From assembly GCF_002813775.1 (NCBI RefSeq), contig NZ_CP020370.1:3497501-3561500 (forward strand): a stretch of DNA of 64,000 nucleotides. Direction: 5' to 3'. Made by a program: the position numbers and the translations under genes. Below, one piece after another: positions 1 to 60,108 of the stretch. The first letter of the stretch is position 1. Each line of letters opens with the position of its first letter. The notes beneath the pieces were generated by a model, which worked only from the letters and a program-made list of their open reading frames with translations, was not told the DNA's origin and searched no databases. Source of the DNA: Candidatus Thiodictyon syntrophicum (GTDB lineage: Bacteria; Pseudomonadota; Gammaproteobacteria; Chromatiales; Chromatiaceae).

Positions 1-271
1 GCTGCTGTTCGTGCTCGAAAACCTGGTGGACGCGACCTATTCCCGCGACAAGCGCGAGGCCCTGGCCCGCGCCAACCGGCGCTTGGCCGTTACGCGGCAC
101 CTGTGGCGTCTGTGTCTGGAACTGGAGGTCATCGGGCTCAAGCGCTACGAGTACGGGGCCAAGCTGATGTTGGCGCTGGGCGGGGAGATCGGCGCCTGGC
201 TGCGCGCGCGCAGCGCGCCGCCGCCGCCCGCGGAGTCCGGTCCGGCCGGCGCACCGACGGCACCGGCATGA
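1..271 (+). CDS. avd: DGR accessory variability determinant (Avd-like four-helix protein), 3' part
   Basis: The open frame enters from the left edge, so the true start is outside the window and only about 89 C-terminal residues are present. The visible part is helical and basic. It has the residues YSRDKREALARANRRLAVT and ends with KRYEYGAKLMLALGGEIGAW, the type of C-terminus seen in four-helix-bundle Avd proteins that accompany DGR reverse transcriptases. Known role of the family: a pentameric nucleic-acid-binding partner of the RT, needed for mutagenic cDNA synthesis from the template RNA. The stop overlaps the RT start as ATGA, so the two are translationally coupled. A low-complexity Pro/Ala tail follows the conserved part. 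The assignment rests on the short homologous segment plus its position directly before a DGR-type RT. Confidence 0.75.
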   Translation, partial: LLFVLENLVDATYSRDKREALARANRRLAVTRHLWRLCLELEVIGLKRYEYGAKLMLALGGEIGAWLRARSAPPPPAESGPAGAPTAPA

Positions 272-1335
272 AGCGTCTCGGGGACCTGTGGCCGCGGCTC
301 GTGGCCTTCGAGAACCTCTGGTTCGCCTGGCGGCGCGCCCGCCGCGGCAAGTCGCGCTCCCAGGGCACCGCGCTCTTCGAACTGGATCTGGAGCACAACC
401 TGGTCGGGCTGCAGCGCGAACTCACGCAGGGCACCTGGACCCCGGGTCCCTTTCGGCTCTTCACCATCTACGAGCAGAAGGCGCGGCTGATCGCGGCGGC
501 GCCCTTCCGCGACCGCGTGGTCCATCACGCGGTGATGCGGGTCATCGAGCCGCCGCTGGACGCCCGCTTCATCTCCGACAGCTATGCCTGCCGCCGCGGC
601 AAGGGTACCCATCGGGCGGTGGCGCGCTACCAGGAATGGGCGCGCCGCTACCGCTACGCGATGAAGCTCGATGTCCGGCGCTACTTTCCGTCCATCGACC
701 GGCTACTGCTGCGGGATTGTCTGGCGCGCCGAATCAAGGATCGGCGGGTCCTGGCCCTGCTCGAGCAGATCATCGATTCGGGACCTGACTACAGCGAGCG
801 GCCCGCGCCCTTTCCCGGCGATGACCTGTTGACCCCGCTGGAGCGCCCGCTCGGCATCCCGATCGGGAATCTCACCAGCCAGTTTTTCGCCAACCTGTAC
901 CTGGATGATTTCGACCACTGGGTCAAGGAGTCCCTGCGCTGTCCCGCCTATCTGCGCTATGTCGATGACATGGTGCTGCTGGCCGATGACAAGCAGCAAC
1001 TGGCGGACTGGCGCGCGGCCATCGGTGAGCGGATGGCGGCGCTGCGCCTGCGTCTGCATCCCGAGCGCGGGCAGATCGAGCGCACCGCCGACGGCTTCAC
1101 CCTCTTGGGTTACCGGGTGTTCCCCGGCTTTTGCCGACTGCGCAGCGAAAACCCCATTCGCTGCGGGCGCCGCCTGCGGGGTCTGGCCGCGGCCCTGGCC
1201 GCGGGGCGGATCGGCTGGGAGCCGATCGACGCCTCGATCCACGCCTGGGTCGGTCATGCCTGCCAGGCCGATACGCTCGGACTGCGCACGGCGGTGCTGG
1301 GTAGGCTAGTATTCAGTCGTGGGGGCGGCGCCTGA
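268..1335 (+). CDS. Diversity-generating retroelement reverse transcriptase
   Basis: 355-residue RT. The first catalytic Asp is in KLDVRRYFPSID (D135) and the active-site box is YVDD at residues 231-234. Between them lies GIPIGNLTSQFFANLYL (from residue 196), whose SQ replaces the SP of group II intron RTs, a hallmark of DGR RTs. There is no maturase or endonuclease domain and the length fits the family. Role: copies the template RNA with errors at adenines, giving mutagenised cDNA that replaces the variable repeat of a target gene. The ATG at 268 is chosen because it overlaps the avd stop (ATGA). An adenine-rich template repeat lies directly downstream, completing an avd-RT-TR order. The target gene is not visible here. 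Confidence 0.9.
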   Translation: MKRLGDLWPRLVAFENLWFAWRRARRGKSRSQGTALFELDLEHNLVGLQRELTQGTWTPGPFRLFTIYEQKARLIAAAPFRDRVVHHAVMRVIEPPLDARFISDSYACRRGKGTHRAVARYQEWARRYRYAMKLDVRRYFPSIDRLLLRDCLARRIKDRRVLALLEQIIDSGPDYSERPAPFPGDDLLTPLERPLGIPIGNLTSQFFANLYLDDFDHWVKESLRCPAYLRYVDDMVLLADDKQQLADWRAAIGERMAALRLRLHPERGQIERTADGFTLLGYRVFPGFCRLRSENPIRCGRRLRGLAAALAAGRIGWEPIDASIHAWVGHACQADTLGLRTAVLGRLVFSRGGGA

Positions 1336-1337
1336 GC

Positions 1338-1462
1338 GCACCCGGGTGTTGCGCGGCGGGTCTTGGAACAACGACGGCCGTAACCTGCGCGCCGCGGTCC
1401 GTAACAGGAACGCGCCGGACAACCGGAACAACAATCTCGGTCTGCGTCTCGCCAGCCCGCCC
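1338..1462 (+). other. DGR template repeat (TR)
   Basis: Directly after the RT stop is a stretch that, if translated, reads like the end of a formylglycine-generating-enzyme/C-type-lectin fold: VLRGGSWNNDGRNLRAA, then NRNAPDNRNNNLGLRLA. In this GC-rich setting it has a conspicuous run of AAC codons (eight AAC plus one AAT between about 1368 and 1437). This is the design that lets adenine mutagenesis change residues without making stop codons. There is no domain before it, so it is not a protein gene but the noncoding template for a CLec-fold variable protein encoded elsewhere. Boundaries are approximate because the matching variable repeat is not in the window. Confidence 0.82.
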
Positions 1463-1744: not shown

Positions 1745-1870
1745 GTGGGAGCGGCTTCAGCCGCGACGAGTCCGCGGGAACTTGCGCGGTCCCGCGCTAA
1801 CCCGCGCGTGGCCTTCACGCGAAGGGCACGGCAGTGTGCGAGGTCGCGTCGCGGCTGAAGCCGCTCCCAC
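1745..1870. repeat. REP-like inverted repeat pair
   Basis: A 24-base arm at 1745-1768 (begins GTGGGAGCGGCTTCAGCCGC) is repeated in exact inverse at 1847-1870, with a 78-base GC-rich centre. Each arm is itself partly palindromic (GCGGCTTCAGCCGC). The same core recurs at 8431 beside the Uma2 gene. It fits a REP/BIME-type dispersed element and lies in the roughly 1-kb gene-poor stretch after the DGR. Confidence 0.7.
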
Positions 1871-2286: not shown

Positions 2287-2436
2287 GGGGTGCGATCAGA
2301 ACTGATGCCGTGACCGAGATCCCGGGCACGCCGTCCGGGTCGTTGTCGTTGTCGTTGTCGTTGTCGTGATCGGATTGTTCGATTTCGACAACGACAACGA
2401 CAACGATGCCCGGTTCCTGAGAAGCTCCGGTCGCTG
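2287..2436. repeat. Hexamer inverted-repeat element, copy 1
   Basis: Four to five tandem GTCGTT units (about 2340-2368) are followed by an AT-richer centre and the inverse array of ACAACG units (about 2386-2406), forming a long hairpin. Flanks on both sides (GGGGTGCGATC..., then GCCCGGTTCCTGAGAA...) match copy 5 at 50597-50741, so the repeated unit is about 150 bp and not only the hexamers. Four further copies are at 34144, 48260, 49293 and 50597. Confidence 0.75.
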
Positions 2437-4386: not shown

Positions 4387-4536
4387 TCCACAGATGAACA
4401 CAGATGAACACAGATGTTCTTCAAATTGTCATACGCTTATCGCTGATGCCGCAATCACCGGCAAGATGAGTTCCGGCCACGCGTAAGTCAATGAATAATT
4501 TGTTTTCATCTGTGTTCATCTGTGTTCATCTGTGGA
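4387..4536. repeat. 30-bp perfect inverted repeat, ATCTGTGTTC type
   Basis: 4387-4416 and 4507-4536 are exact inverse copies made of TGTTCATCTG units. The left arm is preceded at about 4352 by CCGCAAATGAACGCAAATAA, which resembles the arms of the separate repeat at 50940-51066. The block is AT-richer than its surroundings and fills the gap between the ABC exporter and the FtsW-like gene. The centre (4417-4506) has no gene. Confidence 0.7.
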
Positions 4537-4555
4537 CAAATCTTCTTTATCTGCC

Positions 4556-7825: not shown

Positions 7826-8401
7826 ATGCACGCACCCGCACGTCCCTGCCCCAGCCTCTACGACCAGCTCGAAGCCTTACCCCAAGGGTTGACGGGGGAG
7901 ATCCTCGACGGCCGACTCTATGTCCATCCGCGCCCGAGCGGGCCCCATGGGTTTACCTCCTCGGCGCTCGGCTACGACTTGATCGGACCCTTCCAACGGG
8001 GGCGCGACGGCCCCGGCGGCTGGTGGATCATCGACGAACCGGAACTGCACTTCATCCGCAACGCCGAGGTCGATGTCCCCGACCTGGCCGGTTGGCGACG
8101 CGAACGGATGCCGCTTATTCCGCAGGAACACCGCTATACCGTGGTCCCCGATTGGGTGTGCGAGGTCCTGTCGAAGTCGAGCGCGGACACCGACCGGAAT
8201 GTGAAGATGCCGATCTACGCGCGCTTCGGCGTGGCCTATGCCTGGTTGATCGATCCGCAGGCGCACACCCTGGAGGCCTATGCCCTGGAAGCCGGCGCCT
8301 GGCGCGCGCTCGGGCGCTTCGCCGGCGCCGCGCCGGTCTGCGTCGCACCCTTCAATGCCGTGACCATCCAATTGGACGATCTGTGGGCGCCGACGGCATA
8401 G
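7826..8401 (+). CDS. Uma2-family (DUF820) putative nuclease
   Basis: 191 residues with the family pattern: an early LTGEILDGRLYVHPRPS segment, then EVDVPDLAGWRRERMP, PDWVCEVLSKSSADTDR, KMPIYARFGVAYAWLIDP and a C-terminal beta-rich part. The acidic residues in VPDLAGW and CEVLS and the Lys in NVKMPIYA correspond to the PD-(D/E)XK-like centre assigned to this family. Biological role is unknown; copies are abundant in cyanobacteria and purple sulfur bacteria. No strong ribosome site precedes the ATG. The gene is monocistronic and flanked by related palindromic repeats, suggesting movement or repeat-rich neighbourhood turnover. Confidence 0.85.
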   Translation: MHAPARPCPSLYDQLEALPQGLTGEILDGRLYVHPRPSGPHGFTSSALGYDLIGPFQRGRDGPGGWWIIDEPELHFIRNAEVDVPDLAGWRRERMPLIPQEHRYTVVPDWVCEVLSKSSADTDRNVKMPIYARFGVAYAWLIDPQAHTLEAYALEAGAWRALGRFAGAAPVCVAPFNAVTIQLDDLWAPTA

Positions 8402-8430
8402 CGACTGGGAGTGAGTTTTCACTCAACCTC

Positions 8431-8583
8431 AAGGGTGGGAGCGGCTTTAGCCGCGACCAGCCTCGATCAGAATCCCGGCCTATCAGCCAACGGTGAGGTC
8501 TGCGGTCCGCACAGCGGACCCTAGGGCCCCGCGCCCGTAGGGTCCGCTGTGCGGACCAGCGACCTCCCGTTTAGCAGGATGGC
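8431..8583. repeat. REP core plus 20-bp perfect inverted repeat
   Basis: 8431-8453 carries the GTGGGAGCGGCTTTAGCCGC core seen at 1745. Then 8504-8523 (GGTCCGCACAGCGGACCCTA) is inverted exactly at 8538-8557, followed by AGCGACCTCCCG as in the copy at 7651-7719. No coding content. Confidence 0.7.
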
Positions 8584-8612
8584 CAGCGAGCTTAATGCAT
8601 GTGGCAATTCGG

Positions 8613-9050
8613 ATGAACAATCTTTACGAGGCCGATTTCGCGCAATGGGCACAAGAACAGGCCGAGCTGTGCCGCCAAGGCCGCTATAGCGAATTGGATG
8701 TCGAGCATCTGTCGGAGGAACTGGAAGGCATGAGCGCGCGTGAACGCCGCGAACTCGTCAGCCGCCTGGGCATTCTGCTGGCGCATCTGCTGAAATGGCA
8801 GTACCAGCCGCAGCGACGCGGCAACCGTTGGCGTCTGACCATCAAGATTCAGCGGTTCGATGTTGCAGCGCTGCTACACCAGAACCCCAGTCTGCGGGCA
8901 CGCTTTGAAGAGTTCCTGAGCGATGCCTATGCGCGAGCCATCCTGCAGGCCGCTGGTGAAACCGGCCTGGACGAAAACGTATTTCCTGAGGCTTGTCCCT
9001 TTTCCGCCGGGCAGGTGCTTGGCGATCATTGGCCGGACGCGGTTTCCTAG
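8613..9050 (+). CDS. DUF29 family protein
   Basis: 145 residues from the chosen start MNNLYEADFAQWAQEQAELC, which is the usual N-terminus of this family; an in-frame ATG 18 bases upstream gives a less typical start. Family features: AELCRQGRYSELDVEHLSEE, then a helical LVSRLGILLAHLLKWQYQP and a C-terminal PEACPFSAGQVL. DUF29 proteins are small, soluble, all-helical and of unknown function, common in cyanobacteria and Chromatiales and often next to repeats. No operon partner. Confidence 0.85.
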   Translation: MNNLYEADFAQWAQEQAELCRQGRYSELDVEHLSEELEGMSARERRELVSRLGILLAHLLKWQYQPQRRGNRWRLTIKIQRFDVAALLHQNPSLRARFEEFLSDAYARAILQAAGETGLDENVFPEACPFSAGQVLGDHWPDAVS

Positions 9051-58089: not shown

Positions 58090-60108
58090 CTAATTCATCT
58101 CGGGAGCGTTGGAAAAGGACTTGACCAGCTCCTCCAGGCGCAGCGGGCGGCCGGTGCGGAGCTCATGCAGATGACGCTCCAAAAGGTCCAGGGTCTTGCG
58201 CTGCTGGGGCTTGTCGCGAGCTAGGAGCCAGGCGGATAATTCTGCCTTCACTTCCGGAAAGAGCTCGGGCATCGTCTCGTCGGCGAGCTGTTGGACCAGC
58301 GTCAGATAATCGGCGACATAGCGTTCCCCGGCGTCGAAAACCTGCCGCTTCAGTACGGGATCACGGCGGTCGCTCGCGGTATATTCATGATTCCAGCGAG
58401 CAAGCCTTTCCCAACCAAAGGACGCGTTCGCGCTGGCCTGACGCATCAGGGCCTCGATATAGCGCTTCTCGACAGCCCGGACCCGTCCCGCGTTTTTCGC
58501 GAGCTCGTGGTCGAATTGCAGGATGCGCCGCCGCAGATCGGCGATTTCTTCCTCCTTGCGGTTGGCATCACCCTCGGAAACCGGGCACTTGGCGGGTGGG
58601 ATGTCCCGGGCTTCAAGCACCGCGACCCGCGCCATAAGCGTCTGTCGTTCGGCCGTGGCGCGATCCAGATCGAGGCGCGCGTTGCGCTCACGATCATTGA
58701 TACTCGTCAAGTCGAGCTGACAGCGCGTCAGACCCTCTGCGCATTGGCGACCGGTCGCACTGCTATCAACAAACCTTTTCTGGTCGGAAACACAGCGGTC
58801 GGTCTCGGCCCGCAGTTCCTTCGCTCTGACCGCGAGCGCAATCCCGCTGACTTCCAACTCACGGTTACGTGCCTCCAGCCCCGCGAGGCGCTGCGCCGAC
58901 TCGGTGCTGACCCGGGTATCGTCGGCCGCGAGTGATTTCAGTTCAGCCGTGCAGCGCTCAAAGTCCGATTCCAGGCGACGGCCCTGGTCGCTCAGAAATT
59001 GGCACTTGTCCTGCTCGGCCTGGGTCGCTGGACTGTTCTGTCCGACGAGGCCGGGGCGGGTCAAGGCGCTGCGCCCCTGATAGTCGCTGAACTCCCGGTC
59101 CAACTCATCCGGGGTCGCCCGCACCGAGGAGATGCGCGTGGTCAAGGCGAGTCGTAGCCCAACCTTCGCGGGACGCACCAGGTGCCCCTGATCATCGTGG
59201 GAGATGGCCTCGGTGCGCAGTGCGGCGGAGAGATCGGACGCTTTGACGCTGAAATTGCCGCCGCAGATAGCCAACTGTCCGAAGCGCCCCTGTTGGTACT
59301 CCGGACCGAACAGGCTCAAGGTGAGTTCCTCGGCATTGCCGATGAGGTCATAGAGCCCTAAGGCGTTCGGCTTAAGGCTGCCGGCGTCCTGCAGGCGATT
59401 GCCCGCGGTCTCGCGGTACCATTCATGATTGCTCAGGGTGTCGGCATAGGGGTGGGGGCGGTCGAAGACATCAGGGTTGTTCTCCAGGGTGGGCAGACCG
59501 CCCCTGGCCGCAAAGACCCACTCCGCCTCGGTGGGGAGGCGGGCGAATGCGTCAGCGCCGCGCCAGCGTGGCAGTTGCGCCCGCTCATTGGTCAGCATCC
59601 AGGTGTTGAGGGCCTCAATGAACTGCTGGACCTCGGCCAGGGTGACGGCGGTCTTGGGCAGCTTGGATATCACCGCGGGTCGCGGGGGCCTTTGCTCCTG
59701 CTGATCCAGCCAGCGCATCACGACGCTCCACTGCCCTTCGGTCACCTCGGTTTCGGCCAGATAATAGAACCAATCCGGCTTAGCGTTCCGGCTGCCGACG
59801 AACCCCCCGGAGAGCAGGGTCTCGACCAGACGCTCCTTGTATTTCGGACTCGGCTCCCGCGAACCGAGTTTGATCGTGCGAGCGGCGAACAGATGGCCGC
59901 CGTCAATCCCGAGCCAAACGGCGCGAAACGCCATCGCCTGACCCTCGGGCAGGCGCAGTTCAAACCGTTCCGGGACCTGGTCTGGTGCGGGCGCGGCAGC
60001 GACTGCACCGCCGCAGATGGCCGCCAGGCAAAGCAGGCACCGCGACAACCATCCCGCACGCCGGCTCGCGCGCGGCAATGAAGACTTGGCAACGCTGGGG
60101 ATTTTCAT
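58090..60108 (-). CDS. tagR: SUMF1/FGE-fold periplasmic protein with coiled-coil extension, TagR-like
   Basis: 672 residues. Sec signal (SRCLLCLAAICGGAVAAAP). SUMF1/FGE-type domain about 50-350: YYLAETEVTEGQWSVVMRWL, RLPTEAEWVFAARGG, NALGLYDLIGNAEELTLS, CGGNFSVKASDLSAALRT and VGLRLALTT. Then a long coiled coil (about 370-560) and a helical end. The catalytic cysteine pair of true formylglycine generators is not evident, as in TagR, a periplasmic signalling protein of the type VI Tag-PpkA pathway. The ATG overlaps the permease stop. The coiled-coil extension makes it much longer than a plain SUMF1-domain protein and may link to the coiled-coil lipoproteins downstream. Confidence 0.7.
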   Translation of the reverse strand: MKIPSVAKSSLPRASRRAGWLSRCLLCLAAICGGAVAAAPAPDQVPERFELRLPEGQAMAFRAVWLGIDGGHLFAARTIKLGSREPSPKYKERLVETLLSGGFVGSRNAKPDWFYYLAETEVTEGQWSVVMRWLDQQEQRPPRPAVISKLPKTAVTLAEVQQFIEALNTWMLTNERAQLPRWRGADAFARLPTEAEWVFAARGGLPTLENNPDVFDRPHPYADTLSNHEWYRETAGNRLQDAGSLKPNALGLYDLIGNAEELTLSLFGPEYQQGRFGQLAICGGNFSVKASDLSAALRTEAISHDDQGHLVRPAKVGLRLALTTRISSVRATPDELDREFSDYQGRSALTRPGLVGQNSPATQAEQDKCQFLSDQGRRLESDFERCTAELKSLAADDTRVSTESAQRLAGLEARNRELEVSGIALAVRAKELRAETDRCVSDQKRFVDSSATGRQCAEGLTRCQLDLTSINDRERNARLDLDRATAERQTLMARVAVLEARDIPPAKCPVSEGDANRKEEEIADLRRRILQFDHELAKNAGRVRAVEKRYIEALMRQASANASFGWERLARWNHEYTASDRRDPVLKRQVFDAGERYVADYLTLVQQLADETMPELFPEVKAELSAWLLARDKPQQRKTLDLLERHLHELRTGRPLRLEELVKSFSNAPEMN

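What the first reader, a model, noticed from the sequence alone, without database searches (positions are those of the whole stretch)
1..1462. Diversity-generating retroelement: avd, RT and adenine-rich template repeat
Seen: an RT with YVDD and GIPIGNLTSQ, coupled by ATGA to an Avd-like C-terminus, followed by a non-gene stretch whose translation imitates the end of a CLec/FGE-fold protein and is packed with AAC codons. Known: this set defines DGRs, which hypermutate a target gene by adenine-specific reverse transcription. Inference: the target is a FGE/C-type-lectin-fold protein gene, probably just left of the window.
Basis: partly seen in the sequence, partly recalled or inferred. Interest (0 to 1): 0.85.

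Follow-up and report, generated by a model that had tools for sequence, protein, structure and literature searches.

The report
Retroelement that hypermutates a sensor gene
A purple sulfur bacterium carries a genetic element that appears to copy a short template with errors at its A positions and to write the result into the sensor end of a large immune-like protein; this kind of system is already known, but here the protein comes with a specific, testable guess about what it does.

Summary
The finding is real. The window's first 1.46 kb hold the 3' part of an avd gene, a reverse transcriptase gene and a 117-base template repeat (TR, window 1339-1455) of Thiodictyon syntrophicum Cad16. The variable repeat (VR) lies about 0.5 kb left of the window, at the 3' end of a 1000-codon gene. 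The diversified protein has an nSTAND1 ATPase, a hydrophobic segment and a C-terminal FGE/C-type-lectin domain holding the VR. Its N-terminus resembles DUF4062 (below the Pfam cut-off), which a 2026 preprint reports to be a TIR-like NADase. Loci with avd, RT, TR/VR and a full-length homologue of the target occur in three other genomes of the family; the RT of one looks broken. Two same-genus drafts keep orthologues of the target without detectable retroelement, and both orthologues look broken. The genome has at least three more DGRs. DGRs diversifying STAND-type sensors in purple sulfur bacteria were described in 2024 (PMC10907252), so this is a new member of a known kind. Activity and defence function are untested.

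The parts
2..271 (+). avd, 3' part (full gene C1:3,497,370-3,497,771 begins 131 bases left of the window; 133 aa, computed pI 9.8)
268..1335 (+). DGR reverse transcriptase, 355 aa, YVDD and IGNLTSQ motifs, start codon overlapping the avd stop (ATGA)
1339..1455 (+). template repeat (TR), 117 bases, 23 adenines, all in codon positions 1 or 2 in the target's frame; begins 3 bases after the RT stop. Its VR (C1:3,496,862-3,496,978) and target gene (C1:3,493,986-3,496,988) lie left of the window

Best explanation
It is a complete diversity-generating retroelement. The TR is transcribed (probably with avd-RT), the RT-Avd complex copies it with errors at adenines, and the mutated cDNA replaces the VR at the 3' end of the target gene (mutagenic retrohoming). 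Shown here: all parts and the adenine-only, one-way TR-to-VR difference pattern. Inferred from the family: the biochemical steps. The target is an NLR-like protein: DUF4062-like N-terminus, nSTAND1 ATPase, one hydrophobic segment, hypervariable FGE/CLec C-terminus. Most likely the variable domain senses a ligand, the ATPase oligomerises, and the N-terminal domain acts as effector, probably by NAD+ cleavage, in an abortive defence. These last steps are inference, at about 0.4; the confidence below is for the DGR and its target.
For: TR/VR: 12 of 12 differences at template A, 0 of 94 non-A sites. One copy at 90% in the genome, the next at 69-72%. Between species the TR adenines are conserved (Cad16 vs L071 TR: 2/23 A, 19/94 non-A differ; vs L072 TR: 4/23 and 20/94), while within the L071 and L072 loci TR and VR differ at 6/23 A, 0/94 non-A and 10/21 A, 4/96 non-A. 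Avd over curated cut-offs. RT's best solved-structure match is 8ub7, E 3.9e-47 (that 8ub7 is the Bordetella phage DGR RT is recalled). The target's C-terminus matches the Treponema denticola variable protein 2y3c, E 1e-9, over residues 909-997, behind several FGE enzymes. Target domains: nSTAND1 305 bits, FGE-sulfatase 190 bits. Syntenic loci with full-length target homologues in L071, L072, L158.
Against: No activity was measured and no two strains of this species could be compared. No inverted repeat of 7 or more bases was found just downstream of the VR, unlike the hairpin recalled for BPP-1. The N-terminal domain scores below the Pfam cut-off in Cad16 (14.3 vs 24.7 bits), G001 (17.1) and L071 (18.0) and is not reported for L072 or L158; a profile of it found nothing in PDB sequences, and its structure model (pLDDT 54) gave no usable fold match. 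L072 lacks one of the two conserved glutamates. The hydrophobic segment is borderline in Cad16 (mean 1.51) and L071 (1.37, where two other stretches score higher).
Confidence: 0.93

Rival explanations
1. A fossil DGR: the VR was diversified in the past but the element no longer works.
For: DGR-less, apparently broken orthologues of the target exist in two same-genus drafts, and the L158 locus has its RT matched in three frames, so loci of this family seem to decay.
Against: In Cad16 all 94 non-A sites of TR and VR are identical, including every third codon position, so no drift is visible since the last copying event; RT, Avd and target frames are open.
Confidence: 0.1
2. The DGR is real but the target is not a defence sensor; it serves recognition of neighbours, surfaces or nutrients in aggregates.
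For: PMC10907252 states that CLec domains on STAND proteins had not been experimentally characterised (section 11 part 1); Cad16 forms aggregates, also with Desulfocapsa (passages of PMC5944118).
Against: A STAND ATPase with an N-terminal domain and a variable C-terminal sensor is the layout of known antiviral STAND proteins (PMC10907252 section 11), and DUF4062 is reported to act in abortive infection (PMC13174449 section 4 part 1).
Confidence: 0.3
3. Not a DGR: a group II-type or defence RT beside an ordinary duplicated FGE gene fragment.
For: The RT also scores against the NCBIfam group II RT (129 bits, cut-off 300) and 77 PADLOC models at E up to 1 (25 shown, many of them defence RTs).
Against: None of the 8 NCBIfam models matched by the RT reaches its cut-off; Avd reaches its own. 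Two ordinary FGE homologues in the genome differ from the TR at 21 of 91 and 20 of 80 non-A sites, unlike the VR (0 of 94).
Confidence: 0.01

Closest known systems
DGR-diversified STAND NTPase conflict systems of Thiohalocapsa PB-PSB1 (DGR 3 and DGR 6; PMC10907252; abstract, section 4 part 1, section 11 part 1, section 14 and passages read)
   Same: Aggregate-forming purple sulfur bacterium with several DGRs; target with STAND ATPase (nSTAND1 in DGR 6) and C-terminal FGE/CLec domain carrying the VR; some targets predicted with a periplasmic CLec domain.
   Different: DGR 6 targets carry an EAD8 adaptor thought to recruit a trypsin-like protease; here the N-terminus is a DUF4062-like domain in the same protein, and one target rather than two was found. 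DUF4062 does not occur in that paper's main text; its supplement was not read.
Treponema denticola variable protein 1 (PDB 2y3c; that it is the DGR protein TvpA is recalled and supported by passages of PMC7159879)
   Same: VR-type C-terminus in an FGE-type C-type-lectin fold.
   Different: Matched only over residues 909-997; chain length 294, so no room for the ATPase and N-terminal domain.
Bordetella phage BPP-1 DGR (prototype; recalled, with RT structure 8ub7)
   Same: RT, Avd, TR, VR, adenine-specific differences.
   Different: Bacterial chromosome instead of phage; TR lies directly after the RT gene; target is not a tail fibre; no hairpin found after the VR.
Swarozyc and other DUF4062 NADases (preprint PMC13174449; abstract, section 4 part 1 and passages read)
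   Same: DUF4062-like domain with a conserved Glu-containing motif; in human TEP1, NWD1, NWD2 and NPHP3 the domain lies next to a NACHT ATPase (passages), a layout like the one here.
   Different: The Klebsiella protein has an HTH/winged auxiliary domain as its sensor; 'FGE' and 'nSTAND1' do not occur in the main text; the Cad16 domain is under the Pfam cut-off.

Membership tests
Diversity-generating retroelement | Reverse transcriptase of the DGR type | tested here: met
   Best solved-structure match 8ub7 at E 3.9e-47, next best 4.2e-18 (identity of 8ub7 recalled); IGNLTSQ motif (its status as a DGR signature is recalled)
Diversity-generating retroelement | Accessory protein Avd | tested here: met
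   87.5 bits vs cut-off 80; 49.3 vs 40
Diversity-generating retroelement | TR near the RT with a near-identical VR in a target gene | tested here: met
   117 bases, 90% identical, about 1.9 kb apart
Diversity-generating retroelement | Differences confined to template adenines | tested here: met
   12 of 12 at A, 0 of 94 at non-A
Diversity-generating retroelement | VR at the 3' end of a ligand-binding (often CLec-fold) gene | tested here: met
   VR covers residues 960-997 of 1000, within FGE-sulfatase 737-998; ligand binding itself not tested
Diversity-generating retroelement | Mutagenic retrohoming activity | not testable with these tools
   needs culture or population reads
DGR-diversified STAND conflict system (PMC10907252) | Target with STAND ATPase and C-terminal CLec domain | tested here: met
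   nSTAND1 242-645 and FGE 737-998
DGR-diversified STAND conflict system (PMC10907252) | RT in DGR clade 5 (5D) | not tested
   no reference tree was built
DGR-diversified STAND conflict system (PMC10907252) | Several DGR loci in an aggregate-forming host | tested here: met
   four loci with adenine-biased TR/VR; single cells or aggregates of up to 100 cells (passages of PMC5944118)
DGR-diversified STAND conflict system (PMC10907252) | Protects against invaders | not testable with these tools
   the abstract of that paper says this remains to be tested there too
DUF4062 NADase (PMC13174449) | Pfam DUF4062 above cut-off | tested here: not met
   14.3 vs 24.7 bits in Cad16. Of six homologues tested, three pass (L095, L100, L116; 27.4-32.3 bits; E to Cad16 1.2e-25, 1.9e-23, 1.3e-18) and three do not (L092, L093, L111)
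DUF4062 NADase (PMC13174449) | Conserved glutamate at the active site | tested here: inconclusive
   Glu119 and Glu121 of Cad16 (GSEWEY) are each kept in 18 of 19 rows; L095 lacks the first, L072 the second. Not aligned to the residue named in the preprint
DUF4062 NADase (PMC13174449) | NAD+ cleavage | not testable with these tools
   biochemistry

The most novel reading that the evidence does not exclude
A single-protein, membrane-spanning bacterial NLR whose periplasmic lectin-fold sensor is hypermutated by its own retroelement and whose cytoplasmic DUF4062 domain destroys NAD+ on recognition: an adaptive-like repertoire of suicide receptors spread over the cells of an aggregate, with the target gene decaying once the retroelement is lost.
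Probability: 0.25. Interest if true: 0.8.

Novelty: new member of a known kind. Interest (0 to 1): 0.42.

Why it matters
What DGRs do for free-living bacteria is, by the 2024 paper's own account, still unproven. Here a cultured, fully sequenced strain carries a compact, apparently recently used locus whose target has a predicted enzymatic effector. That makes the proposal that DGR targets are antigen sensors directly testable by NAD+ assay, phage challenge and VR sequencing.

Tried and rejected
Other targets in trans: the two next-best TR matches in the genome (C1:1,493,026 and C1:3,264,762) differ from the TR at 21 of 91 and 20 of 80 non-A sites. They were rejected as VRs of this element, although the first shows some A excess (14 of 21, p = 2e-4; the second 8 of 19, p = 0.12).

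A viral origin was looked for: one scan of viral contigs, which reaches close relatives only, gave one pattern match and no relative of the RT.

Structure of the N-terminal domain: an AlphaFold model of the L072 homologue from two sequences had pLDDT 54, and Foldseek gave no PDB match at E <= 0.001; no conclusion drawn. A profile of 19 rows found no PDB sequence at E <= 1. Avd found no PDB sequence at E <= 0.1.

Post-VR hairpin: none found.

The ungapped TR/VR scan found adenine-biased pairs in 19 of 22 loci; the misses were L055, L073 and L082. It prints only pairs with at least 60% of differences at A and p < 1e-4, so it selects for the pattern and is no unbiased control; no shuffled control was run. 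L055 gave a pair once gaps were allowed. Of eight more loci, three gave pairs (L156, L157, L158; in L157 only 12 of 20 differences are at A). L075-L078 were not scanned.

For alignment A1, 17 of the 30 genome-search loci L091-L120 plus L071 and L072 were used. Of the 13 left out, 11 had their match on the minus strand and were not turned (L094, also minus, was), L119 held a stop, and L115 was left out without a reason. The only row of 19 without a DUF4062 hit was L072 (E up to 10).

Same-genus drafts: absence of RT, Avd and TR in G001 and G006 rests on draft assemblies. The RT search listed only matches at E <= 1e-50; Avd gave none at E <= 0.01 in either. The TR search of G001 gave 19 matches at E <= 1, the best being the target's own VR and the next 72% over 85 bases, not examined; that of G006 scored 4 of 73 candidates and gave three other matches at 72-80%, one of them (C856) fetched: an FGE homologue without a TR/VR pair.

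Full report
Where it is. The window is C1:3,497,501-3,561,500 of a 7.74-Mb genome in three contigs. Contig lengths 6,837,296 and 484,824 equal the chromosome and plasmid pTs485 of Thiodictyon syntrophicum Cad16T as printed in PMC5944118 (passages read). The first-stage reader saw only the right-hand part of the locus because the window cuts through avd.

The parts. Left to right: target gene C1:3,493,986-3,496,988 (1000 aa), avd C1:3,497,370-3,497,771 (133 aa), RT C1:3,497,768-3,498,835 (355 aa, window 268-1335), TR window 1339-1455. The avd stop and RT start overlap (ATGA). The TR begins three bases after the RT stop. It also lies just after the RT in L071, L072, L080, L081 and the G052 contig L124, but between avd and RT in L079. 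Avd passes the curated cut-offs for bAvd and DivGenRetAVD. The RT passes RVT_1; its best solved relative is 8ub7 at E 3.9e-47, against 4.2e-18 for the next.

The decisive test. Searching the whole genome with the template gives one copy at 90%. It aligns without gaps over 117 bases. Twelve positions differ and all twelve are A in the TR (5 to C, 7 to T); none of the 94 non-A positions differs (p = 1.8e-10). All 23 template adenines fall in codon position 1 or 2 of the target frame. Thirteen complete codons hold an A; none of them can become a stop by changing A, and they allow about 7e12 protein variants (a fourteenth codon, cut by the end of the repeat, was not counted). The identity of all other sites, third codon positions included, suggests a recent copying event (inference).

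Controls. Two ordinary FGE homologues elsewhere in the genome differ from the TR at 21 of 91 and 20 of 80 non-A sites. Between species, TR adenines are conserved (Cad16 vs L071: 2 of 23 A and 19 of 94 non-A differ; vs L072: 4 of 23 and 20 of 94; vs G052: 1 of 23 and 28 of 94), while within loci the VR departs from its own TR mainly at A (L071 6/23 A, 0/94 non-A; L072 10/21 A, 4/96 non-A). A scan filtered for adenine bias found TR/VR pairs in 19 of 22 loci around related RTs.

The target. Pfam gives nSTAND1 at 242-645 and FGE-sulfatase at 737-998. The VR covers residues 960-997. The FGE part matches PvdO and formylglycine-generating enzymes and, over 909-997, the Treponema denticola variable protein 2y3c at E 1e-9. 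Between ATPase and FGE lies a hydrophobic stretch (683-701) at the same place in all six proteins examined (Cad16 and five homologues), with a net charge of +3 to +6 in the 15 residues on its N-side and 0 or +1 on its C-side. If it spans the membrane, this predicts a cytoplasmic ATPase and a periplasmic sensor. Its mean hydropathy is borderline in Cad16 (1.51) and L071 (1.37, where two other stretches score higher), 1.75-2.15 in the other four; no topology program was available.

The N-terminus. Residues 18-125 resemble DUF4062, below the Pfam cut-off (14.3 vs 24.7 bits). A search with this domain found homologues in 31 of 141 other genomes (32 of 142 with the own genome, E <= 1e-10). Of six homologues tested, three pass the cut-off (27.4-32.3 bits) and three do not. 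Eighteen of 19 aligned members hit DUF4062 at E up to 10, best 4.2e-9. Each of the two glutamates of the GTEWE-like motif is kept in 18 of 19 rows. PMC13174449 (a May 2026 preprint; abstract, section 4 part 1 and passages read) reports that DUF4062 is a TIR-like NADase with a catalytic Glu, that tested bacterial members protect against phages by abortive infection, and that in some human proteins the domain lies beside a NACHT ATPase. The link to the Cad16 protein is an inference by homology. A structure model was too poor to help.

Relatives. An RT search at E <= 1e-50 found matches in 10 of 141 other genomes (11 of 142 with the own genome), and a pattern scan gave eight loci in genome contigs. 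Three loci have the same order with a full-length homologue of the target carrying nSTAND1 and FGE: L071 (Thiohalocapsa MAG; RT 73%, target 56%), L072 (Chromatiaceae MAG; RT 74%, target 54%) and L158 (target 51% and open; RT matched in three frames, so apparently broken unless the assembly is wrong). Pfam DUF4062 is seen below cut-off in L071 and not in L072 or L158, though the N-termini of L071 and L072 align with that of Cad16 (48% Cad16-L072). Two same-genus drafts keep the target but no detectable RT, Avd or TR (limits under Tried and rejected). In G001 the target matches in two frames; its VR differs from the Cad16 TR at 11/23 A and 10/94 non-A sites (p = 1.8e-4). In G006 only residues 651-1000 match in the 12,000 bases read, and no close copy of the N-terminal domain was found elsewhere in that genome; 10/23 A and 7/93 non-A sites differ (p = 1.2e-4). 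Past diversification followed by loss of the element and decay of the target would explain both, but both are drafts and two cases are few.

More DGRs in this genome. The RT search gave nine matches at E <= 0.001. Besides the window's locus, three have adenine-biased TR/VR pairs: C1:2.97 Mb (two VRs, 14 of 16 and 22 of 24 differences at A), C1:2.23 Mb (two VRs, 13 of 16 and 14 of 17), and C1:5.51 Mb (15 of 17). The other five RTs were not examined. FGE-sulfatase matches number 68.

Placement in the literature. PMC10907252 (parts named in Closest known systems) describes nine DGRs in Thiohalocapsa PB-PSB1, including STAND targets with FGE/CLec sensors, and proposes that they are antigen sensors; its reference 45 is a paper on aggregate-forming bacteria of Lake Cadagno, so Cad16 may be in its tree, which I could not check. 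It says many targets have N-terminal extensions without characterised domains, some with TIR or peptidase domains. PMC7159879 (passages) linked DGRs to FGE-type domains in VMAP-ternary systems in 2020. A full-text search for 'diversity-generating retroelement' with 'Thiodictyon' found no paper, and PMC5944118 does not use 'retroelement' or 'reverse transcriptase' in its main text; the held library lacks most subscription journals.

Verdict. A genuine, probably functional DGR and a new member of a known kind. The specific additions are a likely effector, a possible topology, and a comparison with DGR-less relatives. Whether the target is a defence receptor is open.

Noticed in passing
L055 (C1:5,503,000-5,516,000), gene 7943-8743 minus strand: A fourth DGR in the genome whose VR aligns to its TR with a one-base gap, so that the reading frame at the end of the target differs from that of the template.
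   Followed up: partly
L053 (C1:2,958,000-2,977,000): A DGR with two FGE targets beside kinase, AAA ATPase and Hsp70-like genes (domains judged by eye), plus two further FGE genes nearby for which the filtered scan gave no TR pair.
   Followed up: partly
L054 (C1:2,222,000-2,234,000): A DGR with two FGE targets next to trypsin-like and MoxR-like genes (by eye), resembling the published ternary conflict systems.
   Followed up: partly
L009 3470-3859: A ParD-like antitoxin gene followed by a short, apparently truncated ParE-like frame directly upstream of the DGR target (by eye, no family search).
   Followed up: no
window 1745-1768, 1847-1870 and 8435-8458: A 24-base repeat (GTGGGAGCGGCTTCAGCCGCGACG) in inverted copies just right of the TR and once more; none expected in shuffles. 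By eye, similar copies lie upstream of the target and between target and avd. Possibly MITE-like, as reported around other DGRs.
   Followed up: partly
window 59146-59766: Another FGE-sulfatase domain on the minus strand in a 679-aa open frame.
   Followed up: no
window 2340-2407 and 4390-4540: Short GTCGTT / ACAACG runs forming an inverted repeat, and ACACAGATGA repeats in inverted arrangement (by eye).
   Followed up: no
L085, L086, L090: DGRs of relatives in which one of two VRs lies on the strand opposite to the TR.
   Followed up: no
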